Positions 1 through 11,375 of a DNA stretch of 35,272 bases are shown here, piece after piece (position 1 is the stretch's first letter; each line of letters opens with the position of its first letter). Both the position numbers and the translations under genes were made by a program. The notes beneath the pieces are model-generated. The model was not told where the DNA came from and did not search any database. It was given only the letters and a program-made list of their open reading frames with translations. The DNA is from a virus, in the IMG/VR virus record IMGVR_UViG_3300020451_001948, positions 1 to 35,272 of that record; one strand, written 5' to 3'.

Positions 1-325
1 ATCTAGTATGATACTTATCTAAATAGTCAACAAACATTTTCCAAGAATGTTCTTGAGAAGGATAGGATCTCCATTTATCCATAATATCTGCCTTAGAACA
101 TCCTGCTACTTTTGCATGAAAATCTACAACGTCTGTCGTATATTCGTAATCTGGATCTTTAGCAATTGTTTCTGGTTTAAAATGAACATTAAATTCAGAA
201 TTTGGTATGACTTCTAATTTCATAGGGTCTACCATGACAGCAGCCAATTGTACTGGACTACAAACTTCTGGATTAACACCATCTGTTTCAAAATCAAATA
301 CACAAATTTTATTATAATTAATCAT
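1..325 (-). CDS. DnaQ-like 3'-5' exonuclease, partial (C-terminus beyond left edge)
   Basis: Reading leftward from an ATG at 325, the frame stays open to the window edge (108 codons). The start reads MINYNKICVFDFETDGVN, where DFETDG is exonuclease motif I (Asp and Glu metal ligands) of the DEDD/DnaQ superfamily. Motifs II and III would lie outside the window or in the unaligned middle. Enzymes of this family remove mismatched nucleotides from DNA 3' ends. Placed two genes downstream of a C-family polymerase, this is most likely the proofreading subunit acting in trans, as epsilon does in bacteria. It overlaps the preceding 61-residue gene by 8 bases, so the two are probably translationally coupled. 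The family call is solid from motif I and position; the exact partner is inference. Confidence 0.8.
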   Translation of the reverse strand, partial: MINYNKICVFDFETDGVNPEVCSPVQLAAVMVDPMKLEVIPNSEFNVHFKPETIAKDPDYEYTTDVVDFHAKVAGCSKADIMDKWRSYPSQEHSWKMFVDYLDKYHTR

Positions 326-503
326 TATCTGCAACTTCTACTTCGTGTATGGGTACAACAAAACCTTTAACAGCACTATTGCTTGTCAATTTACAATTAT
401 GGACTTTACAACATGTTACTCTAATATCATCAATTTTTACATACTCTTGACCTTCATGGGTAAAAACAGTACCCACAGATACATCCTTAAATTTTTCTTT
501 CAT
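318..503 (-). CDS. Small hypothetical protein (61 aa) between polymerase and exonuclease
   Basis: I do not recognise a function. The 61-residue product begins MKEKFKDVSVGTVFTHEGQEY and has the alternating pattern of a small beta-rich domain. It holds adjacent cysteines (TCCKVHNCKL) that might bind a metal, and an acidic tail. Its ribosome binding site GAGGAG (515-520) lies inside the last codons of the polymerase gene, 11 bases before the ATG. The stop overlaps the start of the exonuclease gene. This embedding shows that the end of the polymerase reading frame here is a normal gene boundary, not a sequencing error. An accessory role in the replisome is possible from position only. Confidence 0.65.
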   Translation of the reverse strand: MKEKFKDVSVGTVFTHEGQEYVKIDDIRVTCCKVHNCKLTSNSAVKGFVVPIHEVEVADND

Positions 504-505
504 AA

Positions 506-2383
506 TTAAACAGTCTCCTCTTTGAGTAAATCTCGAATTGTCATAATTTTATCAAGCATAGCTACACCTAATATGTCAAACTTGATAATACCGATAGATT
601 CTAAATCTTGCATTTCCATACCAGCAATCATCTGTTTATTTTTCGAATCATATACCATAGGACAAACATCACTAAGTGCTTGAGAACTAATAGCAATACC
701 AGCAGCATGTTTGGACTGATTAGACTTAACTCCCTCTAATCTTATAGCCTGTTCAAAGCGTTTGGCAAGTGGTCCTTGTAATTCCCCTTTATCGTCTACA
801 AAACACCATTGTTTAAGTTTGTCTCCGCTATTTTCTAAAGTCCATCTTATAATCGATGCTTCGCCAGTATCTTCTTTCATTTCCTGTAATTGATCAGCAA
901 TTCGTGCTTCATCAGGAATGCTTTTGGTAATTTCATTCATCTCAGCAAAAGATACATTACCATAAACTCTTAACACATCCTTTAACGCTCCTCTACCCTT
1001 AATAGTATTAAAGGTAATCATTTGAGAAACTTTGTTTTCACCATATTTATCTTTGATATACTGAATAATTTTCTCTCTTTTATAGATAGGAACATCTACA
1101 TCAATATCAGGCATAGATATATGTTCTGCAGTATTACGTCCAGCATTATAAAATCTATCAAACATAAGATTATATTTAATGGGATCTATATCTGTAATTC
1201 CAATCAGATAAGACACCAAACATCCAGCAGCACTACCTCTACCTGGCCCCGGTAGCCAGCTATTATCTCTAACGTGATTAACTATATCTTGAACAATTAA
1301 GAAGTAGCTAGATAAGTCCGCCCCTTGTAAAACATCAAGTTCATACTTAATTCTTTCTATATAAAGATGATGTTCTGATTCTGGAATCACTGTAGCTATC
1401 TTTTCTTTCCATCCTTCCCTGCATAGCTGTCTAAGATATTCTGCATCAGTATATCCTTTTGGACATGAAAAAGGAGGAAGATTAGGTTTACTAAGAATAT
1501 CATATTCTTCGCACATAGAATCTACCAAATTGGTGTTTTCTATTTCTTCTTCAGTATGCAGTTCTTGAATTTCTTCTTGTGATAAAATATGGTAATTGTC
1601 AGATGTAAAAAAGCACTTCATAGGCACATCTTCGTCTAAACTCAATTTGCGATTGATCTCAGTAAATGTAGTTTTTAAATTATTACACAGTAGTATCCTC
1701 TGATCTACAGCATCACTTTTCTTACAGTAGTGTGCGTCAGGAGTGCATATAACTTTTGTGTTTGTTAATTTAGATAACTTTCTAATACAATCTGTTAAGT
1801 GTATTTGTGGTTCATTATTATCTCTATCCATCAATTGTGCTTCTAGAAAAAAGTTTTCTTCGCCAAAGATATCTTTACATTGACGAATATGCTCTTTACC
1901 TATGTTTTCCCAATCAGAAACGACAGCATCATTTTCCATAATCTTATTAGCAATAGTGGAACCTAAATGACCACAAATTCCGATCATATTACCATCCATT
2001 ATTTCACCCAATCTTTTAAGATCTAGTCTGGGCTTAAAATAATAATGCTCCGGACGATTAGATTCTGATACTATCCGAATCAGGTTTCTCCAACCATCAT
2101 AGTTTTTGGCTAGTATTAAAAAATGACTAAGTGTACGATTTTCTTTATGCTTGATGGTCGCATCATTATCGCAAATATATAATTCGCAACCCAAGATGGG
2201 CTTGATGCCCCTCTTTTTCATAGCACCATAAAATTTAATTGCTCCAGCTATATTGCCATGATCTGTTAAAGCACAAGACTTAACGCCTATTTCTTCACAA
2301 CGATCAGCAATTTGTTCTGGTTTAGATAAACCATCCAATAAACTGTACATACTATGTACATGCAAAGGTATATATTTTTTCAT
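506..2383 (-). CDS. dnaE: DNA polymerase III alpha subunit (C family), N-terminal half with PHP and palm domains
   Basis: This 625-residue protein copies DNA. The PHP domain is at about 1-270, with HVH at 8-10, LTDHGN at 39-44, GCELYI near 65-70 and PDAHY at 215-219, so the metal-binding set looks intact. The palm carries GPGRGSAAG at 379-387, the aspartate cluster PDIDVD at 425-430, SQMITF at 453-458 and IKFDILG at 600-606, the last holding the third catalytic aspartate. The protein then ends at KEETV, about 20 residues on. Bacterial DnaE is roughly 1160 residues, so the fingers, beta-binding and OB-fold regions are missing. No intein half is seen at the end. The start at 2383 has AGGA just before it. 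The rest may be a separate gene beyond the left edge. Confidence 0.93.
   Translation of the reverse strand: MKKYIPLHVHSMYSLLDGLSKPEQIADRCEEIGVKSCALTDHGNIAGAIKFYGAMKKRGIKPILGCELYICDNDATIKHKENRTLSHFLILAKNYDGWRNLIRIVSESNRPEHYYFKPRLDLKRLGEIMDGNMIGICGHLGSTIANKIMENDAVVSDWENIGKEHIRQCKDIFGEENFFLEAQLMDRDNNEPQIHLTDCIRKLSKLTNTKVICTPDAHYCKKSDAVDQRILLCNNLKTTFTEINRKLSLDEDVPMKCFFTSDNYHILSQEEIQELHTEEEIENTNLVDSMCEEYDILSKPNLPPFSCPKGYTDAEYLRQLCREGWKEKIATVIPESEHHLYIERIKYELDVLQGADLSSYFLIVQDIVNHVRDNSWLPGPGRGSAAGCLVSYLIGITDIDPIKYNLMFDRFYNAGRNTAEHISMPDIDVDVPIYKREKIIQYIKDKYGENKVSQMITFNTIKGRGALKDVLRVYGNVSFAEMNEITKSIPDEARIADQLQEMKEDTGEASIIRWTLENSGDKLKQWCFVDDKGELQGPLAKRFEQAIRLEGVKSNQSKHAAGIAISSQALSDVCPMVYDSKNKQMIAGMEMQDLESIGIIKFDILGVAMLDKIMTIRDLLKEETV
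515..520 (-). promoter_or_regulatory. Ribosome binding site embedded in the 3' end of the polymerase gene
   Basis: GAGGAG on the minus strand, 11 bases before the ATG at 503. It sits within the last codons of the polymerase half (residues Lys-Glu-Glu), so it marks the designed end of that gene and the start of the 61-residue one. Confidence 0.55.
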
Positions 2384-2398
2384 TTTCCTATCTCAAAG

Positions 2399-3397
2399 TT
2401 ATTCCGCACTTCCCGGTGCTTTGTAATGTCCTATATTATAACCTTCAGCCTGATACTCGTCAATCACGTTATCCATACCTTTAATGGTTACATCATGTTT
2501 TATTTGTTCACACTTAGTCATTGTGTCTCCCATATTCATTAATTGACCTTCTCTATATTCAACGATTGGAAGATATGGACTATCCTCAAAGGTAGTTTTA
2601 CCAAAATGACACAGCTTGGTACATTTCCAACTCTTATTGAGAGGAGGATTCATAGTGTCTCTGATAGTTTCAAACTTTCTCTTCAGCATCATTTCTACTT
2701 GGTATAAATTATCTTTACTAAAACAAACAGAAAACATTCCGCCATCATTAATAAAATCAATAGACACCATAATATTTTCAATATCAGGATAAAGTTTATG
2801 TACTGCATAATAATATAACATCAACTGCGGATCATCATGTAGTTTCTTTAGGGTTTTTTCTTGACCTGTAGCCCAATCTAACCTTCTGCCTGTTTTCCAA
2901 TCAATAACTTCATATGTGTTATCGTTGACTTTAGTAATTAAATCAATTGTTCCTTTGATAGACAGCTGACCTTCTAAATGTCCTTCTTTAGTGTCATAAC
3001 TATATTTAGCCCATTCTTTATCTATTGTGATATCAAAGTGTTGTTCAGGTTCGACTATTTCTCTGTTTCGAGGGTCAAACATACCATCGCCATATTCAAT
3101 AGCTTTATAAACCCACTTATGACAATCTTTATAGTCTCTGTCCGTCCACTTATGATGTGTAAACTGAGACGTATAATAGTGATATACCTGCTCTGTCATA
3201 TGATCTAGATTATAGTTTGTAATATCTACTGGACCTATAATATCATCTTCAAAATATCTATTATTATTTTGTATGTTTAATTTAACAAAAGCTAAGATTT
3301 CTAAAACCTTATGGACAATAGTTCCTTTGTCTGCTTTTTTATTAGATGGTGACCTATGACCTAGATTGTATTCTATAAAGTATTGCATAGGACACAT
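2399..3397 (-). CDS. Cas4-like PD-(D/E)XK nuclease superfamily protein
   Basis: The 332-residue product resembles phage RecB/Cas4-type nucleases. CPMQYFIEYNLGHRSP near the N-terminus and KGTIVHKVLE after it give the conserved cysteine and the GTxxH motif. Further on, IKGTIDLI followed by YEVIDWKTGRRLDW gives the catalytic Asp and the D-x-K core. C-terminal cysteines (SWKCTKLCHFG) may complete an iron-sulfur cluster site as in Cas4; that is inference. The ATG at 3397 has no good ribosome binding site, and family-like residues RSSSYGTHS lie upstream of it in frame. The true start is therefore probably a non-ATG codon at 3427 (ATT) or 3439 (ATA). Likely role: DNA end processing during recombination or replication. 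Confidence 0.82.
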   Translation of the reverse strand: MCPMQYFIEYNLGHRSPSNKKADKGTIVHKVLEILAFVKLNIQNNNRYFEDDIIGPVDITNYNLDHMTEQVYHYYTSQFTHHKWTDRDYKDCHKWVYKAIEYGDGMFDPRNREIVEPEQHFDITIDKEWAKYSYDTKEGHLEGQLSIKGTIDLITKVNDNTYEVIDWKTGRRLDWATGQEKTLKKLHDDPQLMLYYYAVHKLYPDIENIMVSIDFINDGGMFSVCFSKDNLYQVEMMLKRKFETIRDTMNPPLNKSWKCTKLCHFGKTTFEDSPYLPIVEYREGQLMNMGDTMTKCEQIKHDVTIKGMDNVIDEYQAEGYNIGHYKAPGSAE

Positions 3398-3435
3398 GGA
3401 ATGTGTACCATACGAACTACTTCTAATGTATGTTA

Positions 3436-4032
3436 CTATAATGGTAAAATTCCTTTATCTATTAGAAAGTCATGAATAATTTCGTTTTGCTTTCCAATAG
3501 TTAATTCATCATTATCAATAACCAAATTAAAGTTTGTAGCATCGTACCTGTTAGCGTCTAATGACTCTTCGCTTGCGTGTGTTGAGTTGTATGGATTTCT
3601 ATTAAGTTTAATAACTAGACCATCATTATTTTTAATAGCTTCGACCTCATTAGGAAATCGGCAGTCTGCGATAATTGCTAAGTCTGGTTTTTCTTTTTCT
3701 ATTAATCTGATGGTAGCTGCTGACCAAACATTATGTTGCATTTTCCTAAATATGTCTGTGCCAACATATTGCATAACTTCCCTAGCAGTCATCTGTCCGC
3801 TACTGTCAGGGGCATAGTGTCTATAGCAATCTACACGTTCGTTTTTGGATTCGTCTGGACCATAACATTGAGAATAAGTTAAACCCAAGACATCCATACA
3901 TAGTTGTTTTAATGGGTCTGCAAAATTATATATTCTAGCTACGCCCAATCCGCGATTTTCAAAAATATTTTTTACAAATTCAGCAGATGTGGTTTTACCA
4001 GATTGTTTTCTGCCAGCAAATGATATAATCAT
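3436..4032 (-). CDS. Deoxynucleoside monophosphate kinase (dNMP kinase)
   Basis: A 198-residue P-loop kinase with Walker A GRKQSGKTT at about 7-15 and the phage dNMP kinase signature FADPLKQLCMDVLGL. A later segment, LAIIADCRFPNEVEAI, matches the DxRFxNE motif of the family. Such enzymes phosphorylate dNMPs to dNDPs and work with the ribonucleotide reductase and dCMP deaminase encoded further upstream. The ATG overlaps the primase stop by 4 bases (ATGA), so expression is probably coupled. The length fits the family. Confidence 0.85.
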   Translation of the reverse strand: MIISFAGRKQSGKTTSAEFVKNIFENRGLGVARIYNFADPLKQLCMDVLGLTYSQCYGPDESKNERVDCYRHYAPDSSGQMTAREVMQYVGTDIFRKMQHNVWSAATIRLIEKEKPDLAIIADCRFPNEVEAIKNNDGLVIKLNRNPYNSTHASEESLDANRYDATNFNLVIDNDELTIGKQNEIIHDFLIDKGILPL

Positions 4033-5189
4033 ACTACACCTCTTATATAATCTTTGATTTCCGTATCAATTTCTTCTGAAGTCATATCAGCAATATCTGC
4101 TTTAGTAATAGACGGGACAAATACTCTATATGTATTTTGACATTTTTCTTTAATTTGTTCTGCTGCTTTTCTACCAGCATCATCATTATCGGTTAAAACT
4201 ATAATAGTCATTGCTCCTGATGAGTCCAGAATAATCTTTTGACGGTCACTTAATGCCGCACCAAAAATACCTAGACTATTATGTATGTTATTTTCTTCTA
4301 ATTTCCAGACATTGCCAGGACTTTCTACTAAAATAGCAACACCTGTATCTTTTATATGTTTTTGAGCAAACCAAAAATTATACAAAGAATTTTGACTTTT
4401 AAAATTAGCACTATGTTTCCATTTAGAATATAAATATTTTTGATGATCTTGTGGACAATCATTATCAGGATCATGAAAACATCCACATTTATCACATTTC
4501 TCAAAGATGCTTCTACCTGAACAGCCTATCATATACGTATAATCAGGATCATAAATAGGTGCAACAACTCTGTTAGACATTTCTCTATTAGGATTATCAC
4601 ATAAACCTATATCATACTTATCTAATATCGCTGGAGTAAATCCCCTATTAATATAATATTCTGCTGGTATTTTTAATAAGCCTCTAATACGATTTCTGGT
4701 TAAGCAGTTAGTCGTGTCTACTTTTACATTATTTTTTATATGACTAACAGCGTTTGTAAATCTATTTTTATTTCTAGTCTCTGTAGATACTTTAATATCC
4801 TTTAAGTCCTTCTTCAAAAAAGAAGTAATAAATTCTATAGTTTGTTTAAAAGTTACGGTTTTATCACCCTCTTCACTCCACTGATGTTTTCTATTAGACA
4901 ATAAACCTCTAACAAAACCTATGATAGATCCCTTAAAACATTTTTCGCATCCGTGTGTTCTACATTTCCAATTTCCTCTATAGGAGTCTCCTTCAACATA
5001 TAGGTTTAAAGCACTCTCATTATCCCCTTCGTGTATAGGACATGCCATACTGATCATTTTACCATGATCTTTATAGTCCAATTCAAAGTGTTCCAATAGA
5101 TCTTCTATATTATCACAAAGGTCGTCGCACAAAACTTTTAGTTTTGCTTGATCATTCAAAGGGGATTTCTTGGTCATCAGCATTGTCAT
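4029..5189 (-). CDS. dnaG: DNA primase, DnaG/TOPRIM type
   Basis: This 386-residue primase makes RNA primers for lagging-strand synthesis. An N-terminal zinc-binding domain carries ACPIH (Cys50, His53) and KCRTHGC (Cys76, Cys81). The TOPRIM domain carries ILVES (Glu289) and LTDNDDAG (Asp334, Asp336). Between them is a second cysteine cluster, CDKCGCFHDPDNDC (232-245), which may bind another zinc. Three in-frame ATGs occur at 5189, 5183 and 5177; the GAGG motif touches the first and is 6 bases before the second, so 5183 is the likelier start. The gene overlaps the end of the helicase gene by about 30 bases, a tight helicase-primase pair. Confidence 0.88.
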   Translation of the reverse strand: MTMLMTKKSPLNDQAKLKVLCDDLCDNIEDLLEHFELDYKDHGKMISMACPIHEGDNESALNLYVEGDSYRGNWKCRTHGCEKCFKGSIIGFVRGLLSNRKHQWSEEGDKTVTFKQTIEFITSFLKKDLKDIKVSTETRNKNRFTNAVSHIKNNVKVDTTNCLTRNRIRGLLKIPAEYYINRGFTPAILDKYDIGLCDNPNREMSNRVVAPIYDPDYTYMIGCSGRSIFEKCDKCGCFHDPDNDCPQDHQKYLYSKWKHSANFKSQNSLYNFWFAQKHIKDTGVAILVESPGNVWKLEENNIHNSLGIFGAALSDRQKIILDSSGAMTIIVLTDNDDAGRKAAEQIKEKCQNTYRVFVPSITKADIADMTSEEIDTEIKDYIRGVV

Positions 5190-6615
5190 CCTCTACTATA
5201 AATCCATCATTATTATTTTTATTATTACTCATTACTTCTAATTTAGTTTTACCCTCAGTAATCTTAGCACACCAGCCTTTCATATTACAATTGATATAAT
5301 CGTTATCATCAAGACCTCCACCGTGCCTACTAATTAAAGGAACTAACTTCCTATTGCCGTTATCTGCTCCATCTTCAGCAATTTCTTCAGATGTTTTGCG
5401 TTTAAATATACTGAAATTACTACACAGCCAAACAATTCTGTCTGAACCAGAGGCTGTATCTGTACTTTCTTTTGTAATACCATCTCTATTTAATTGTATA
5501 AAAGCAACTACAGGTACCTTATATCTTGTAGCAAAATTATGTAAGGCGGTCATCATAAAGCCAAGGACTTGATATTCTTTCATATCCTGACTCATTCCAG
5601 CACTATCCATTAATTTTAAATAGTCATAAAATATAACACAATCTTTAGCAGTGCCATCTTCATTCAATCCAACTTCTTTAATTAGCCATCTTCTCATAAT
5701 AGATAGTTGATCTTCAAATGGTTTGCCAGCAATAGACTTATAGAATAATCTGGTGTTTTTTAGATCTTTGACTGCTTCTTTTACCTTCATGTCTTTATTG
5801 GGTGTTTGCGCAAATCTGCCTGTTTCAATATCATTAATTTCGATCTCTGTCATCATTGCCATAACTCTATTGATATGGTCTTCTTTGGTCATTTCTGTGT
5901 CCATATTCAAAACAGGAATTTGTAACTTGTTAGCAATATGAAAACCCATATTGTCAGATAGTAATGTTTTACCAGTTTTAGGTCTAGCAGCAATGACATT
6001 GACTGTACTTCGTCGCAATCCTCCACCAATAGCTTGATCGTATACTGGAAAACCTGTAGGTATGCCCACTTGATCTACTTTATTGTCTACTAAACCTTGT
6101 ACATATTCGTCTAGGTCATCACTAATAGAAACAGGATTATTATCAACATCATTAAGCATATTAGTAAAATCAAATACAGTATCCTCTGCTATACCTAGAA
6201 TACTACCGATAGACTCAGTTCCTGTGACATCTAAAATTTTATCCTGAGCTTTGTCTAATTGTTTTCTTAATAGTCTTGCTATTTCTAGCTTACGAATTTT
6301 TGCAGCAAATTTTCGAACATTATCTAGATTAACAGGAAAATCTAAGACAGCCTTAAGATGTTGTACCTCTTCCTTTTTATTAAATACATTAGAAAGACCT
6401 AACTCTTCAGCAGTAGAGAATATCAATGCTACATCAACAGAAACCTTATGGTCTCTTTCAAAAATTGTTTTTAAGCATTGAAAAATAATCTTATTACTAT
6501 CTACAGTAAAAGAAGTATCCTGAACTATATCTGCGATATCAAGATACGCATCATCTCCGTACTGACATACTCCAGCTAATACTGCTCTTTCTGCTGCTGT
6601 ATCCGAAAGCACCAT
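5152..6615 (-). CDS. dnaB: Replicative DNA helicase, DnaB-like
   Basis: A 487-residue RecA-fold helicase that unwinds DNA at the fork. The N-terminal domain begins SDTAAERAVLAG, the usual DnaB opening. The core has GFPVYDQAIGGGLRRS, Walker A AARPKTGKTLL (about 209-219) and Walker B DCVIFYDYLKLM. The start at 6615 overlaps the preceding stop as TAATG and has AAGGAG 9 bases upstream. An ATG at 6636 in the same frame precedes that AAGGAG and is unlikely to be used. The gene is followed directly by the primase, the expected primosome arrangement. The acidic C-terminus (VEDDNADDQEIPFE) could be a partner-binding tail; that is inference. Confidence 0.92.
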   Translation of the reverse strand: MVLSDTAAERAVLAGVCQYGDDAYLDIADIVQDTSFTVDSNKIIFQCLKTIFERDHKVSVDVALIFSTAEELGLSNVFNKKEEVQHLKAVLDFPVNLDNVRKFAAKIRKLEIARLLRKQLDKAQDKILDVTGTESIGSILGIAEDTVFDFTNMLNDVDNNPVSISDDLDEYVQGLVDNKVDQVGIPTGFPVYDQAIGGGLRRSTVNVIAARPKTGKTLLSDNMGFHIANKLQIPVLNMDTEMTKEDHINRVMAMMTEIEINDIETGRFAQTPNKDMKVKEAVKDLKNTRLFYKSIAGKPFEDQLSIMRRWLIKEVGLNEDGTAKDCVIFYDYLKLMDSAGMSQDMKEYQVLGFMMTALHNFATRYKVPVVAFIQLNRDGITKESTDTASGSDRIVWLCSNFSIFKRKTSEEIAEDGADNGNRKLVPLISRHGGGLDDNDYINCNMKGWCAKITEGKTKLEVMSNNKNNNDGFIVEDDNADDQEIPFE

Positions 6616-6992
6616 TACCCAGCACTCCTTGAACAAGCGTTACATTTGTATCTTTCCGGAGTATCTGTTAGCACGGCAGGATTAACCTCTTCTGTTTTCC
6701 CACAAACCCTACATGTGACTTTGATTGTCTTAAATTTTCTGGTTCTAGGGGTAGGACCATACTTATTTAATTTTTTATCAATCTCAATGTCTGCTTTATG
6801 CAAATTCTTTTCTGCCATACTATCAAATTTGTTCTCTATAAACTGTGGCCTTCTACTACCTCTAGTCCTAATCGGACCTTCAGATTCAGTATTTTGTTTA
6901 GGTTCTGGGACGCTATCAGATTCTTCTGGTAACATATTTTTTAACATATCAATCATTTGTTTGATTTGATTTTCCGAAAGGTTCTCACCCAT
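6615..6992 (-). CDS. Zinc-ribbon protein of unknown function (125 aa)
   Basis: I do not recognise the family. The N-terminal third is probably helical (ENQIKQMIDMLKNML) and is followed by a polar linker rich in Glu, Ser and Pro. The C-terminal 40 residues form a likely zinc ribbon with CRVCG and CNACS about 25 residues apart. The stop overlaps the helicase start by one base (TAATG), and the gene itself overlaps the upstream 166-residue gene by 8 bases. A single-stranded DNA-binding, loader or regulatory role beside the helicase is possible but rests on position alone. Confidence 0.6.
   Translation of the reverse strand: MGENLSENQIKQMIDMLKNMLPEESDSVPEPKQNTESEGPIRTRGSRRPQFIENKFDSMAEKNLHKADIEIDKKLNKYGPTPRTRKFKTIKVTCRVCGKTEEVNPAVLTDTPERYKCNACSRSAG
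6625..6630 (-). promoter_or_regulatory. Ribosome binding site that decides the helicase start
   Basis: AAGGAG on the minus strand, 9 bases before the ATG at 6615. It lies downstream of the alternative in-frame ATG at 6636, so the shorter helicase start is preferred. Confidence 0.6.
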
Positions 6993-7485
6993 TTTTTACC
7001 ATCCCTTTTGCTCTTTGTATAGAAATTAAAATGTCTGAAAGATTTTTTAATGAACTAGATAAGTAAGTTAAACGATCCATACGTTGTTTAGCAAATGTCA
7101 CAATTTTATTTAATTGGTTTGCTTTATCATTGTGTTTAATAGCTTGAGAAGATTTTTCTATGTATCCATAACCTTTATAGTTATTAATTTCATCTGCAAT
7201 TGTAATCTTTATTTCATTTTCAGCCCAATTCATACGAGCCTGTTCACGATTTAAAGTTCTCTGAACATGGAAACCGTATTGTCCAATTCTATATGCAATC
7301 TCTGCACATTGTACTATATCCAATTTTTCAAGTACATTCCTATTCATTGTTAAATATTCTTGTAACTCTTCTTCTGGTAGACTATCATTAGAATAGTTAG
7401 GAAGACCAATACCCTTTTCATAGTCATCTAAAACACTATCCCAAAATTCGACCTGCTCTTTAGAGGTCTTCACTGTATTCGTCAT
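6985..7485 (-). CDS. Hypothetical helical protein (166 aa), possible recombination mediator
   Basis: No recognised motif. The protein looks almost entirely alpha-helical, with a basic, aromatic middle (AYRIGQYGFHVQRTLNREQ) and a long C-terminal helix ending near LSDILISIQRAKG. Size, helical content and position beside RecA and the helicase recall the T4 mediator UvsY, but I see no firm sequence match, so that is a hypothesis. The ATG at 7485 has GGAG 8 bases upstream, a good start. It overlaps the nuclease gene upstream by 26 bases and the zinc-ribbon gene downstream by 8. Confidence 0.5.
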   Translation of the reverse strand: MTNTVKTSKEQVEFWDSVLDDYEKGIGLPNYSNDSLPEEELQEYLTMNRNVLEKLDIVQCAEIAYRIGQYGFHVQRTLNREQARMNWAENEIKITIADEINNYKGYGYIEKSSQAIKHNDKANQLNKIVTFAKQRMDRLTYLSSSLKNLSDILISIQRAKGMVKNG

Positions 7486-7894
7486 TTAAAATTCTCCGCT
7501 TCCACTGTTCAATATCTTCATTATACGGTAACTCAATATATTCAATATCATTTAATTCACACCATTCTTGTTTTTCTCTATCTCGTTGTTTGTGTTTTGC
7601 AAATCCCATCATAGTTTGATGAAAGTGAGGAATAAATTTGTAATGTTGTTCTCCATGTACTTCTATACATTTATTATTTAGTGGTAAGAAAAAATCTAAA
7701 TAAACCGTATGTCCCTTTTTTAAAGGTATAGTAATTTCTTCACAAACTTGTAGAGTAGGAAAACATTCTTTAATTAGTTGTCTTGCTGCGATATGGTATT
7801 TAGATCTAGTGTTTCTACCAGAAGCGCGAGTAATGCCTCTAGATAGATTTAACTTGACCATACTTCCATCTAGGTCAACAACAGTCCTGCTCAT
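7460..7894 (-). CDS. PD-(D/E)XK-like endonuclease (Vsr/DUF559-like)
   Basis: A 144-residue protein with the restriction-endonuclease-like pattern YLDFFLP, then KCIEVHGEQHY, then FAKHKQRDREKQEWCELNDI and IEYIELPY. The Asp, the Glu-x-x-Gly-x-x-His block and the following Arg/Lys helix resemble Vsr and DUF559 endonucleases, which cut DNA one strand or one site at a time. Its ATG overlaps the recA stop (ATGA), so it is coupled to RecA and probably acts in recombination or repair. The precise substrate cannot be told. A homing nuclease is an alternative, but the conserved operon-like placement argues against it. Confidence 0.62.
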   Translation of the reverse strand: MSRTVVDLDGSMVKLNLSRGITRASGRNTRSKYHIAARQLIKECFPTLQVCEEITIPLKKGHTVYLDFFLPLNNKCIEVHGEQHYKFIPHFHQTMMGFAKHKQRDREKQEWCELNDIEYIELPYNEDIEQWKRRILNDEYSEDL

Positions 7895-8904
7895 ACTGTT
7901 AGTCCCATCATTTCCTTTAACTCTTTATGCAACTGATCTGCAACTTTAGGATTAGCCGTTAAGTAATCCCTAACTTTTGCTGCCCCCTGAAACTTAGGTG
8001 TATCCTTAACAGATATTAAAGTATACCAAGCACCGCCTTTTTTAATAATGCCTAAATCAGCACATAATTCTGTTAACTCATGCACACCATCTATACCATG
8101 TCCATAACGTAAATAACTAACGCTTTTACCTCCGGGTGGACCAAGAGCAGAAGTTACTATCTTCCATGTGACCTTTTGACCAATTTGTGGTCCTGTAGCT
8201 GGTTCATTCCATGCTTCTACTTGTTCGGCCCATAGCTTCACATCAGTTTGATAAGCTACTGCTTGACCAGATTTTTCTTTAAATGCTTTGCCATATCCTG
8301 TGGGATTGCCCATGAGATGTGTAATACCAATGACAATATTTTTATTAACGGGAATAACATTTGCAACCTTACGACAAAACTTTGCTAATAGTTTAGCACC
8401 GTCTGCACGTTGCATCTTATCCATACTGGATGTAATTTCTGCCTCAGTGCATAAAGCAGAATATGAGTCTATAATAATAATAGATCCGGGAATCTCATTA
8501 ATAATACGCTCTGCAATTGCTAGATACTCTTCTCCATGTAAAATCTTACCTTGTTGAGAACCTATAATTTCAAATCTGTCTAAATCTAAACCTGCTATGC
8601 CTTGTAAGTCTCTTTTCTTCAATCTACCTTCAATATTTAGGTAAAACGCTTGACGGGGTTTTTCTAAGCTTCCTTGATATTTTTTGTCTAATGCAGTTGC
8701 TGTGAAGTCTAATGATGATGTTGTTTTGCCACATTTCGGCTGACCAGTAAAGATTACAAAGCTACCCTCTGGTATGCCACCACCCAATCCAAGGTCTAGT
8801 GCTGGACTGACCGGAATAATAATTTGATCTTTATCTACAATAGAATTACCTGATAAAACTACTTCGTCACCAAATTGTTTTTTAATATCTTCTTTAAGTG
8901 CCAT
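7891..8904 (-). CDS. recA: RecA/UvsX-like recombinase
   Basis: A 337-residue strand-exchange protein. Walker A is GQPKCGKTT (about 54-62), Walker B is SIIIIDSYSAL, and FYLNIEGRLKKRD holds the glutamate that corresponds to the catalytic Glu of RecA. THLMGNPTGYGK and the following KSGQAVAYQ correspond to the loop L2 region. ATP-dependent filaments of such proteins drive homologous pairing and recombination-dependent replication. The start has GAGG 9 bases upstream. It is a little shorter than E. coli RecA, with a reduced C-terminal domain. It heads the recombination set of nuclease and possible mediator. Confidence 0.9.
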   Translation of the reverse strand: MALKEDIKKQFGDEVVLSGNSIVDKDQIIIPVSPALDLGLGGGIPEGSFVIFTGQPKCGKTTSSLDFTATALDKKYQGSLEKPRQAFYLNIEGRLKKRDLQGIAGLDLDRFEIIGSQQGKILHGEEYLAIAERIINEIPGSIIIIDSYSALCTEAEITSSMDKMQRADGAKLLAKFCRKVANVIPVNKNIVIGITHLMGNPTGYGKAFKEKSGQAVAYQTDVKLWAEQVEAWNEPATGPQIGQKVTWKIVTSALGPPGGKSVSYLRYGHGIDGVHELTELCADLGIIKKGGAWYTLISVKDTPKFQGAAKVRDYLTANPKVADQLHKELKEMMGLTV

Positions 8905-9331
8905 TATCTAAATCCTCTAGCTTGGAAATTATACCTTTTTTAGTTTTTGGTTTACTATATGAAACTTCTGATTTTCTATCTACTTCTTTAGTAAATGATT
9001 TATTTTCGGCATCCAGTTTCTTCTGTTCCTGTTCTATCATATCAGGAAGATGGGGTGCTCGCAACGAGTAAATCTTCTTACCTTTTACTGTTAACAATGC
9101 TTTTACTATTGCCTTATCTGAATAGGTCTTAAGAAGCTTATGAGCAGAACCTATTTGGTTTTTAAAATACTTTTCCCATTCTTTAGACAACCAGAATCTA
9201 TAATGTAAGTCCTTCTTGTCTTTTTGCGCTTTTCTTTCACAAACAAGCTCTGTGATATACTGAGCAGGAGAAACGGATTTACCATTGGAGTATTTTGAAA
9301 TGTAGCTATTCTTTTTTGTCGTCATCTTCAC
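8894..9331 (-). CDS. Hypothetical protein (about 145 aa)
   Basis: Function not recognised. The middle part (YRFWLSKEWEKYFKNQIGSA, then AIVKALLTVKGKKIYSLRAP) is well ordered, with aromatic and basic residues that could contact nucleic acid. The C-terminal third is lysine-rich and probably disordered. The longest frame begins with GTG at 9331; the ATG at 9325, giving MTTKKNSYISKY, is an equally good choice with GAAG directly upstream. The 3' end overlaps the recA start by 11 bases. Its strict association with recA suggests a DNA transaction role, which is inference. Confidence 0.55.
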   Translation of the reverse strand: MKMTTKKNSYISKYSNGKSVSPAQYITELVCERKAQKDKKDLHYRFWLSKEWEKYFKNQIGSAHKLLKTYSDKAIVKALLTVKGKKIYSLRAPHLPDMIEQEQKKLDAENKSFTKEVDRKSEVSYSKPKTKKGIISKLEDLDNGT

Positions 9332-9722
9332 TAATGCTAATTTTTTTTGCGCAATCTCCTAGTTCCTGATCAAATTTATTTACAAACTCATTAACTTTTA
9401 CCTGATAGTCTACTCCAGAAGGTATAGGTATGTGATATGCATTATCAGTTACTTGAGTGATTTCTTGAAAATTACAATTTTCATCTAAGGCTGTCATTTC
9501 TATTTTTAGAGATATATATAGTTCTCTGTCGTAATTAGTAATATGTCGTGGCTCTAAAGGATGATCACTAAGCACATCCTGACCACCAAAATACTTATCA
9601 GGATTTGCTTTAACATCCTCTTGAGTTTGCTCTAGTTTTTTTTGAAATTTTATATTTATAGACTCAAGAACTTCTAGTTCTTCTTTAGATAAGTCTAGTG
9701 AATCAAGCGGATCATTATCCAT
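9306..9722 (-). CDS. Hypothetical acidic protein (138 aa)
   Basis: Function not recognised. The chosen start at 9722 gives MDNDPLDSLDLSKEELEVLE, a typical acidic helical N-terminus. A longer frame to 9788 would add a low-complexity hydrophobic leader and overlap the upstream gene by 74 bases. The body holds a probable helical stretch and a beta-rich second half (AYHIPIPSGVDYQVKVNEFV). The C-terminus is strongly acidic (EDDDKKE). It overlaps the HTH gene upstream by 8 bases and the next gene downstream by 20 to 26. Confidence 0.55.
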   Translation of the reverse strand: MDNDPLDSLDLSKEELEVLESINIKFQKKLEQTQEDVKANPDKYFGGQDVLSDHPLEPRHITNYDRELYISLKIEMTALDENCNFQEITQVTDNAYHIPIPSGVDYQVKVNEFVNKFDQELGDCAKKISISEDDDKKE

Positions 9723-10050
9723 ATGGTTTAAAAATATTGGGGTTATCTGGAGCAGGTTTGTCCCTGTGTGCTTTGGTAATAGCATCATTTTGTTCTGAAG
9801 CTGCCTTAGTCATCACAGAAACCTTATGAGATCCGGAATTGCTCTCTGTAATCATCAAATTAGATGATCTAGGATCTTTAGAAACTACGCTAGACTTGGT
9901 TTTAATACCGTTATCATTGGTAGTATTTTTAACAGCATTTTTTATTTGAGCATCTGTCAATTCTAATTCATTAGCAATTTTACTGACAGCCCAACCCTGA
10001 CTATGCAACCACATAGCAGCATATTTCTGTGTCCTATTAATTCTACCCAT
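9715..10050 (-). CDS. Small HTH-like DNA-binding protein candidate (111 aa)
   Basis: Residues 6-42 read like a helix-turn-helix of the resolvase or sigma region 4 kind: YAAMWLHSQGWAVSKIANEL followed by ELTDAQIKNAV. The rest is polar, lysine- and serine-rich and probably disordered, ending in PDNPNIFKPYG. A regulatory or DNA-architectural role is plausible, but no family can be named. The start is clear: GGGAG lies 7 bases upstream, and the ATG overlaps the previous stop as TAATG. Confidence 0.58.
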   Translation of the reverse strand: MGRINRTQKYAAMWLHSQGWAVSKIANELELTDAQIKNAVKNTTNDNGIKTKSSVVSKDPRSSNLMITESNSGSHKVSVMTKAASEQNDAITKAHRDKPAPDNPNIFKPYG

Positions 10051-10445
10051 TATTCAATCTCCCTTTCTGCATTATGAAACCAGCTTAAATTTTTAGTACT
10101 TAAAAATTGTATATACCAGTTAAAAGCTTTTTCGTTAACTGTTTTAAATTTATCATTAGACTTACATATTCTATCTAGAAAATCATTTGTTTTTTCTTGA
10201 CCGTAGATAGACATTGGATTATACAGCTTGCCATCAGCAGATGTTCTAATCATATGTTTATATGTTCCATCTTTTTTCTGAAGCAATTTAGCATACACCT
10301 CATCATTTTCAACAGATTTGATTGGTTTGTCTTCTACCAAATCATCTTCTTGGCCAGACAAAGTATAAAAGACAGATGTAAGGTCTTCATCATTTATATT
10401 GGTTTCTCGTTTGTAAATATTATCTTGCTGTTGGAAAAATGCCAT
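10050..10445 (-). CDS. Hypothetical protein (131 aa)
   Basis: Function not recognised. The N-terminal 50 residues are acidic and polar (NINDEDLTSVFYTLSGQEDD). The C-terminal 60 residues look folded and helical, with KTNDFLDRICKSNDKFKTV and a tryptophan-containing end (NWYIQFL, LSWFHNAE). GGAG lies 5 bases before the ATG. It sits in a run of short unknown genes between recA and phoH that share tight spacing and so are probably one transcript. Confidence 0.52.
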   Translation of the reverse strand: MAFFQQQDNIYKRETNINDEDLTSVFYTLSGQEDDLVEDKPIKSVENDEVYAKLLQKKDGTYKHMIRTSADGKLYNPMSIYGQEKTNDFLDRICKSNDKFKTVNEKAFNWYIQFLSTKNLSWFHNAEREIE

Positions 10446-10446
10446 A

Positions 10447-10800
10447 TCATCTCCATTTAGGTTTATACTTGGGTTTTGCCATTCTTGACATCCCTTTAGG
10501 TAATTCTTTAGTTAATTCATCTTTAAGTTTATTGTCTTGATATTTAGTATGCTTGTGATCTAATGCTGCCTTCTGATCGGCTGTTAATTTATCCCTGTTC
10601 CTGTTTGCTAAATCTCCGACAGTCTTAAGTTCCGAATCAGATTTGACCACAGAACTCCTTAGTGTCAGCATATCATCATAGTCTCTACCACACACTTTGT
10701 TACAAGATGGACACTTTTGTTTTTCTTTGTAACTGCTTATACTGGACACCAGATCAAAAGACCCCGCGCAAGTTTTGCAGAAATATGTGTAGGTTGGCAT
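10447..10800 (-). CDS. FmdB-type zinc-ribbon protein (117 aa)
   Basis: The N-terminus MPTYTYFCKTCAGSFDLVSS followed by KCPSCNKVCGRDY matches the FmdB regulatory-protein zinc ribbon, with two CxxC pairs about 20 residues apart. The C-terminal half is lysine-rich and probably helical or disordered. FmdB-type proteins are small and their biochemical role is poorly known; phage versions may regulate transcription. The start overlaps the HNH nuclease stop as TAATG. Confidence 0.68.
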   Translation of the reverse strand: MPTYTYFCKTCAGSFDLVSSISSYKEKQKCPSCNKVCGRDYDDMLTLRSSVVKSDSELKTVGDLANRNRDKLTADQKAALDHKHTKYQDNKLKDELTKELPKGMSRMAKPKYKPKWR

Positions 10801-11375
10801 TATTCTGTAAAGTCTTTAACGTAAAGTTCCCATTCGGTTGGAATATCTTTCCTTATAGTAAGTAGCTGATGGTTGACATGCAAGTATTTTTTACTTTTCT
10901 TTGGTATATATGGTTCATTTTTAAGTTTCATACCGGCTTGTCTTAAAGTTTTATTACCTTTTTTAGCATTACACTTATAACATGCTGTAACTATATTAGT
11001 CCAACTTGTAGCAGATTTTCTGGAAAATGGCCATTTAGATTTTGGTATTACATGATCATACGTTAATTGACTTATAGCAGGTGTGGCTCCACAATATTGA
11101 CACGAATAATCATCTCTAATAAAAAGATTTTTACGAGAAAAAATTACAGGTTGACCTATTAATTTAAAATATTTAGTAGTTCTTACTACAGCAGGTATTC
11201 TGCACTTGCCATTAGCCCCTAAAACTATATCGTCCTTATAATGATCTATAATTTCTATACCAGAATATTCTGAGTGAGTATATCTAAATGACCATACCAT
11301 AGCTTTTCTCCAACCGATAATACCGATTGGAGAATAATCAGCATTTAAAACTAAACAATCTTCATGATTTATCAT
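10800..11375 (-). CDS. HNH endonuclease
   Basis: A 191-residue nuclease. It opens with CLVLNADYSPIGIIGWRKAM, the N-terminal motif of a common bacterial and phage HNH group. The HNH core has CQYCG, then LTYDHVIPKSKWP and TNIVTACYKCNAKKGN, giving two CxxC zinc pairs and the catalytic His of DHVIP. Such enzymes nick or cut double-stranded DNA with one metal ion. The ATG overlaps the phoH stop (ATGA). It could be a free-standing homing enzyme, but full integration in the operon suggests a resident function. Confidence 0.8.
   Translation of the reverse strand: MINHEDCLVLNADYSPIGIIGWRKAMVWSFRYTHSEYSGIEIIDHYKDDIVLGANGKCRIPAVVRTTKYFKLIGQPVIFSRKNLFIRDDYSCQYCGATPAISQLTYDHVIPKSKWPFSRKSATSWTNIVTACYKCNAKKGNKTLRQAGMKLKNEPYIPKKSKKYLHVNHQLLTIRKDIPTEWELYVKDFTE

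What the first reader, a model, noticed from the sequence alone, without database searches (positions are those of the whole stretch)
506..2383. C-family DNA polymerase ends right after its third catalytic aspartate
The protein has an intact-looking PHP domain and all three palm aspartates (PDIDVD at 425-430; IKFDILG at 600-606) but stops about 20 residues later, without fingers, beta-clamp site or OB domain. The next gene's ribosome binding site is embedded in its last codons, so the end looks genuine. The downstream 505 bases encode two other proteins, not the missing half. A phage replicase split at this point, with no intein half at the junction, would differ from the known intein-joined split DnaE of cyanobacteria.
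Basis: partly seen in the sequence, partly recalled or inferred. Interest (0 to 1): 0.75.

Follow-up and report, generated by a model that had tools for sequence, protein, structure and literature searches.

The report
Phage DNA polymerase in two genes
A lineage of uncultivated, often very large phages makes its only recognisable DNA-copying enzyme as two separate proteins cut between the catalytic core and the fingers, with a proofreading-exonuclease gene between them and no protein-splicing element at the cut; the split itself is real and fixed across the lineage, but it is a new form of a kind of split already known.

Summary
Confirmed. The 625-aa protein (506-2383, minus strand) is an intact N-terminal half of a DnaE-type Pol III alpha (PHP + palm, all active-site aspartates) that stops 19 residues after the KFDILG motif, at a genuine stop. 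The window is a whole IMG/VR contig whose end hides the partner. A contig 99.9% identical over window 511-11341 (L002) runs on past position 1: small ORF, complete DEDDh exonuclease, then a 537-aa C-half (fingers, HhH, OB), then SSB. Among 109 distinct relatives none is fused; 97 show the C-half downstream on the same strand, with the exonuclease always between. The cut maps to E. coli DnaE 575|585. No intein or Rfam intron at the junction, whereas inteins were detected at other sites in C-halves of some relatives, so the search could see them. In 13 records (113-231 kb) this is the only polymerase of families A, B or C found. Selection is strongly purifying on both halves. Best explanation: a permanent, non-covalently assembled two-subunit replicase (assembly inferred, not shown). 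Split Pol III alpha is known in jumbo phages (PHP-less, unlinked genes, beside PolB) and cyanobacteria (intein-joined). A Bacillota phage is split at the same linker, probably independently. New variant of a known kind.

The parts
506..2383 (-). dnaE-N: N-terminal half of DnaE-type Pol III alpha (PHP + palm), 625 aa; ends after the strand (600-607) and helix (608-621) that carry and follow the third catalytic Asp
   Evidence: AlphaFold2 model pLDDT 87.6 / pTM 0.86, best PDB matches Taq/Mtb/E. coli Pol III alpha
318..503 (-). 61-aa small ORF (phrog_2183-like, function unknown), detected between the halves in 89 of 97 relatives
   Evidence: start has an SD inside the last codons of dnaE-N
2..325 (-). 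5' part of a DEDDh exonuclease gene (epsilon/DnaQ-like), cut by the contig end; complete in relatives (228 aa)
   Evidence: (RNase_T, phrog_192 'DNA polymerase exonuclease subunit'), for the complete homologue; between the halves in 97/97 relatives
1..1 (.). contig end; the C-half (fingers, HhH, OB, 537 aa) and SSB lie beyond it. Homologues: L002:11703-13316 and L002:13454-13825; L003:12745-14358
   Evidence: L002 matches window 511-11341 at 99.9%
2399..3397 (-). PD-(D/E)XK (Cas4/RecB-like) nuclease, same operon direction
3436..4032 (-). deoxynucleoside monophosphate kinase
4029..5189 (-). DnaG-type primase (Toprim)
5152..6636 (-). DnaB-type replicative helicase

Best explanation
The phage's replicative DNA polymerase is a DnaE-type Pol III alpha permanently encoded as two subunits. 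Alpha-N carries the PHP domain and the complete palm; alpha-C carries the fingers, the HhH region and the OB domain. They are translated from neighbouring genes of one replication operon (helicase, primase, dNMP kinase, nuclease, alpha-N, small ORF, DEDDh proofreading exonuclease, alpha-C, SSB) and, by inference, assemble non-covalently across the former palm-fingers linker into one active enzyme, probably with the exonuclease bound at the PHP domain as epsilon is in bacteria. Shown: both halves exist, are complementary and complete at the cut, are syntenic, are under purifying selection, and are the only A-, B- or C-family polymerase found in the large records. Inferred: physical assembly, catalysis, and the role of the exonuclease.
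For: Complementary halves: the N profile ends, and the C profile starts, at E. coli DnaE 575 and 585. 109 distinct relatives, 0 fused, 97 with the C-half downstream, exonuclease between in 97/97, SSB after C in 85/85. L002, 99.9% identical to window 511-11341, carries the C-half. Both halves give confident models matching bacterial Pol III alpha. Invariant catalytic residues. dN/dS about 0.035-0.04 for N and about 0.06 for C between close relatives. One N and one C each, and no PolA or PolB, in 13 records of 113-231 kb. No intein in N or C at the junction and no Rfam RNA there. In L033 and L046 the halves are 3.5-4.1 kb apart with unrelated genes between, so adjacency is not needed. The clade is monophyletic at 100% on N, C and joint trees.
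Against: No complex could be modelled (the tool takes single chains of natural sequence), and nothing is experimental. All large records are of unstated completeness, so a second polymerase is not formally excluded. The window's own C-half is off the contig; L002 diverges from the window exactly downstream of dnaE-N (72% in the small ORF, 94% in the exonuclease start), so it is a very close relative, not the same molecule.
Confidence: 0.87

Rival explanations
1. The halves are joined covalently after translation (cryptic or highly diverged split intein, or ligation), as in cyanobacterial DnaE.
For: Split DnaE elsewhere is intein-joined; true inteins occur in this clade's alpha-C: contiguous in L031 and (by size) L153, split with a standalone nuclease ORF in L046 and L067.
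Against: The N tail is only 17-26 aa past KFDxLG, too short for an intein-N half, and the C head holds no intein-C motif; Pfam intein models fire at other positions in relatives but not at this junction.
Confidence: 0.03
2. RNA-level joining (trans-splicing or an intron holding the small ORF and exonuclease).
For: Phage genes are often interrupted by introns; other phage polymerases are broken with endonuclease genes between the pieces (KLEB27-3 and MMB025).
Against: No Rfam match in the region; the intervening genes are conserved replication genes with their own starts; dnaE-N has its own stop and dnaE-C its own conserved start; the distance varies from 0.83 to 4.1 kb.
Confidence: 0.02
3. The N-half is a decayed remnant or a repurposed PHP protein and the true replicase is elsewhere.
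Against: Invariant palm residues, purifying selection on both halves, and no other A-, B- or C-family polymerase in 13 large records.
Confidence: 0.03
4. Assembly or frameshift artefact.
For: Single metagenomic contig.
Against: Same stop position in 109 distinct relatives from many samples.
Confidence: 0.01

Closest known systems
Bacterial DnaE-type Pol III alpha (E. coli, Taq, Mtb; PDB 2hnh, 2hpi, 7pu7)
   Same: PHP, palm, fingers, HhH and OB in the same order, about 24-33% identity in structure alignments, same fold of both halves
   Different: Two polypeptides; no C-terminal tau-binding domain after the OB; no recognisable internal clamp-binding motif; a new ~25-aa head with a CGC motif on alpha-C
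Minimal split Pol III alpha of group 2.2 jumbo phages (PMC7824862, 2021)
   Same: Pol III alpha nucleotidyltransferase core split into N- and C-terminal proteins in large phages
   Different: That version lacks PHP and the other domains, its genes are far apart, and it accompanies a family B polymerase; here PHP and OB are kept, the genes are in one operon, and no PolB is found
Cyanobacterial split DnaE (Ssp/Npu DnaE)
   Same: DnaE encoded by two genes
   Different: Intein halves splice the protein; the cut lies at Y|CFNKSHS in the region corresponding to alpha-C, well downstream of this cut (site from general knowledge); no intein here
Rossellomorea phage phiT1 gp20 + gp18 (PV767480)
   Same: Split at the same palm-fingers linker, one small ORF between, no intein seen
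   Different: 33% identical; groups with unsplit Moorella phage MTATph1 (weak support 63-72), so probably an independent split; no exonuclease between and no CGC head
Other fractured phage DnaEs (Jayan, KLEB27-3, MMB025, Beyoncage, FreddieHg, Weasels2)
   Same: DnaE in two ORFs, sometimes with a nuclease gene between
   Different: Cut at other places: before PDIDVD, inside fingers, or between PHP and palm; Jayan's split is recent (PS1 is nearly identical and whole)

Membership tests
C-family (DnaE-type) DNA polymerase III alpha | Pol-beta-like palm with three catalytic carboxylates (PDxDxD and the KFDxLG Asp) | tested here: met
   D426, D428, D430, D603 invariant in 37 sequences; PF07733 full length
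C-family (DnaE-type) DNA polymerase III alpha | N-terminal PHP domain without an inserted exonuclease (DnaE, not PolC) | tested here: met
   PF02811 at 7-183; better matches to DnaE than to PolC structures
C-family (DnaE-type) DNA polymerase III alpha | Fingers domain, HhH and OB present in the same genome | tested here: met
   L003 C-half PF17657, PF14579, with PF01336 weak (4e-4); C-half model matches Pol III alpha over ~520 columns. In relatives, not in the window itself, which ends first
C-family (DnaE-type) DNA polymerase III alpha | Internal beta-clamp binding motif | tested here: not met
   No QxxLF-like motif at the equivalent site in 34 C-halves apart from isolated single-sequence matches; no beta clamp (PF02768, PF00712) in the 13-record sets. 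A processivity feature, not part of the catalytic fold
C-family (DnaE-type) DNA polymerase III alpha | Single polypeptide | tested here: not met
   0 of 109 fused
Intein-joined split DnaE | Intein-N after the N extein and intein-C before the C extein | tested here: not met
Group 2.2 jumbo-phage minimal split Pol III alpha (PMC7824862) | No PHP or other domains; accompanied by family B polymerase; unlinked genes | tested here: not met
   PHP present, PolB not found in 13 records, genes linked
Active two-subunit polymerase | Physical association and catalysis by alpha-N + alpha-C | not testable with these tools
   needs complex modelling or biochemistry

The most novel reading that the evidence does not exclude
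The split was not merely tolerated but built into a dedicated two-subunit architecture: alpha-C acquired a clade-specific N-terminal beta-hairpin with invariant or near-invariant cysteines (C8-G-C10 and C35, perhaps a zinc knuckle) that docks on alpha-N and/or the exonuclease encoded between them, so that polymerase assembly, proofreading loading or replicase activation is controlled at the join, in a clamp-independent replicase.
Probability: 0.25. Interest if true: 0.7.

Novelty: new variant of a known kind. Interest (0 to 1): 0.52.

Why it matters
It shows that the apparently indivisible active site of a bacterial-type replicase (palm and fingers) can be permanently divided between two proteins in what looks like the main enzyme of a whole phage lineage, without protein splicing. 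It offers a natural split point for engineered split C-family polymerases, a test of whether alpha can work without tau-binding and clamp-binding elements, and an annotation trap: each half alone looks like a truncated polymerase.

Tried and rejected
Sequencing error or frameshift (rejected: 109 distinct relatives share the stop). Intein at the junction (rejected by Pfam scans, with inteins found elsewhere in relatives as a positive control). Intron (no Rfam match). Another replicase in the genome (PF00136, PF00476: none in 13 records). Clamp search: PF02768 and PF00712 none; PF09116 (gp45-type) was uninformative because no control rang. Scan of viral contigs with phiT1 gp20 found no relatives. 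Deep branching of the phage DnaE tree is poorly supported, so the sister group of this clade, and hence full independence of the phiT1 split, stays open. Some literature is not held (e.g. gkw322, PMC2677866), so prior mention of this clade cannot be excluded.

Full report
What was checked. The ORF at 506-2383 (minus strand) is 625 aa and ends in a normal stop; the next gene's ribosome binding site sits in its last codons. Pfam finds a PHP domain (7-183) and the whole DNA_pol3_alpha domain (315-606, profile 1-260 of 260). By alignment with gut-phage, Geobacillus-phage and E. coli enzymes, the PHP metal-ligand positions look filled (H8, H10, D17, H42, E67, H87, H139 in place of the usual Cys, D216, H218); this is inference from the alignment.

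Where the rest is. The window is a complete IMG/VR record of 35,272 bases, so the missing half could only be read in relatives. IMG/VR scans gave 80 relatives, then 80 more with overlap. L002 is 99.9% identical to window 511-11341 and continues beyond position 1: small ORF, full DEDDh exonuclease, a 537-aa C-half, then SSB. Over 109 distinct complete N-halves, none is fused to the C-half; 97 have the C-half downstream on the same strand (gap 830-4110 bp, median 867), always with the exonuclease between, in 89 with the small ORF detected, and with SSB after it in 85 of 85 cases with enough sequence. Of the 12 without a visible C-half, 7 contigs end within 1 kb, and 5 (L034, L038, L040, L042, L128) end 1.9-4.0 kb downstream; in L038 and L128 the sequence after the exonuclease is an inserted block like the one that precedes the C-half in L033 and L046.

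The cut. Profile alignment to E. coli DnaE (L096) puts the end of alpha-N at residue 575 and the start of homologous alpha-C at 585, the linker between the helix after the third aspartate and the fingers. Unsplit phage relatives have a short linker there. The alpha-N model (pLDDT 87.6) ends with the strand 600-607 carrying D603, the helix 608-621 and four loose residues. The alpha-C model (pLDDT 89.8) matches Pol III alpha over about 520 columns. Alpha-C starts with about 25 residues that unsplit homologues lack, with a CGCxF motif in 93 of 97; in L036, L129, L137 and L152 the called start lies after it. Alpha-C ends at the OB domain: there is no tau-binding C-terminal domain, and the region that holds the clamp motif in E. 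coli is replaced by a longer segment without a QxxLF-like motif.

Is it the replicase? In 13 records of 113-231 kb there is exactly one alpha-N and one fingers domain, no family B and no family A polymerase, no beta clamp domain in the sets tested and no delta-prime-type clamp loader. Completeness of these records is not given, so absence is evidence, not proof. Neighbouring genes are helicase, primase, dNMP kinase and nuclease upstream, exonuclease and SSB downstream. dN/dS is about 0.035-0.04 for alpha-N and about 0.06 for alpha-C between close relatives, so both are under strong purifying selection.

Joining mechanisms. No intein signature lies at the end of alpha-N or the start of alpha-C. 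The same search does find inteins elsewhere in alpha-C of relatives: a contiguous one with an HNH domain in L031 (and a same-sized insertion in L153), and a split intein in L046 and L067 at NK|SHS/GVSYA, four residues past the cyanobacterial DnaE intein site, with a free-standing nuclease ORF in the gap in L046. In those two phages the polymerase is encoded in three pieces, two of them presumably spliced. No Rfam family matches the junction region. In L033 and L046 unrelated genes separate the halves by 3.5-4.1 kb. Non-covalent assembly is therefore the best reading; it was not tested.

Evolution. The clade is monophyletic with 100% support on N, C and joint trees, so the split predates its diversification (down to about 51% identity in alpha-N). 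Phage phiT1, 33% identical, is cut at the same linker with one small ORF between; it groups with an unsplit Moorella phage, but backbone support is weak. Other phages break DnaE at other points, and Bacillus phage Jayan has done so recently relative to the nearly identical, unsplit PS1.

Comparison with the literature. A comparative study of jumbo phages (PMC7824862) described a minimal Pol III alpha lacking PHP, split into proteins from distant genes and accompanied by PolB. The present system keeps PHP and OB, is encoded in one operon with its proofreading exonuclease, and appears to be the sole polymerase. Papers on C-family diversity mention intein-split cyanobacterial sequences (PMC3919608) or, in the passages found, no such split (PMC12926913), and the passages found in a paper on polymerase swapping in phages do not mention one (PMC11348598). 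In the isolate-phage collection no record is above 60% identity to the window protein, so the clade is essentially uncultivated.

Verdict. The finding is a lineage-fixed, intein-free, two-gene Pol III alpha cut between palm and fingers: a new variant of a known kind, with a clear biochemical test.

Noticed in passing
L046:15967-18850, L067:12730-15677: Alpha-C is itself broken by a split intein (N part with Hint/Intein_splicing, C part ending GIATSN|SHS/GVSYA) with a ~0.9-kb gap holding, in L046, a free-standing DUF559/REase-like nuclease ORF; the polymerase is thus encoded in three pieces.
   Followed up: partly
L031:12726-15092, L153:6740-9079: Large insertion near alpha-C residue 100: in L031 a contiguous intein with an HNH domain (Pfam); L153 has an insertion of the same size at the same place.
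   Followed up: partly
L033:13175-14248, L038:14173-15216, L046:12725-15080, L128:7978-8961: DUF1559-type (and in L046 DUF1501) proteins, families typical of Planctomycetota by general knowledge, sit after the exonuclease (before alpha-C in L033 and L046); suggests planctomycete hosts for that subclade. One relative (L185) lies instead in a Flavobacteriales MAG bin, so the host is unsettled.
   Followed up: partly
window 318-505: Identity to L002 drops from 99.9% to 72% in the small ORF and 94% in the exonuclease start: a likely recombination breakpoint just at the end of dnaE-N; the small ORF is variable.
   Followed up: no
L085 (Bacillus phage Jayan) versus L084 (PS1): Nearly identical DnaE, but Jayan's is broken just before PDIDVD with a small ORF between: a very recent fracture.
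   Followed up: no
L092, L093, L094 (actinobacteriophages): DnaE split between PHP and palm in Beyoncage, FreddieHg and Weasels2, another recurrent cut site.
   Followed up: no
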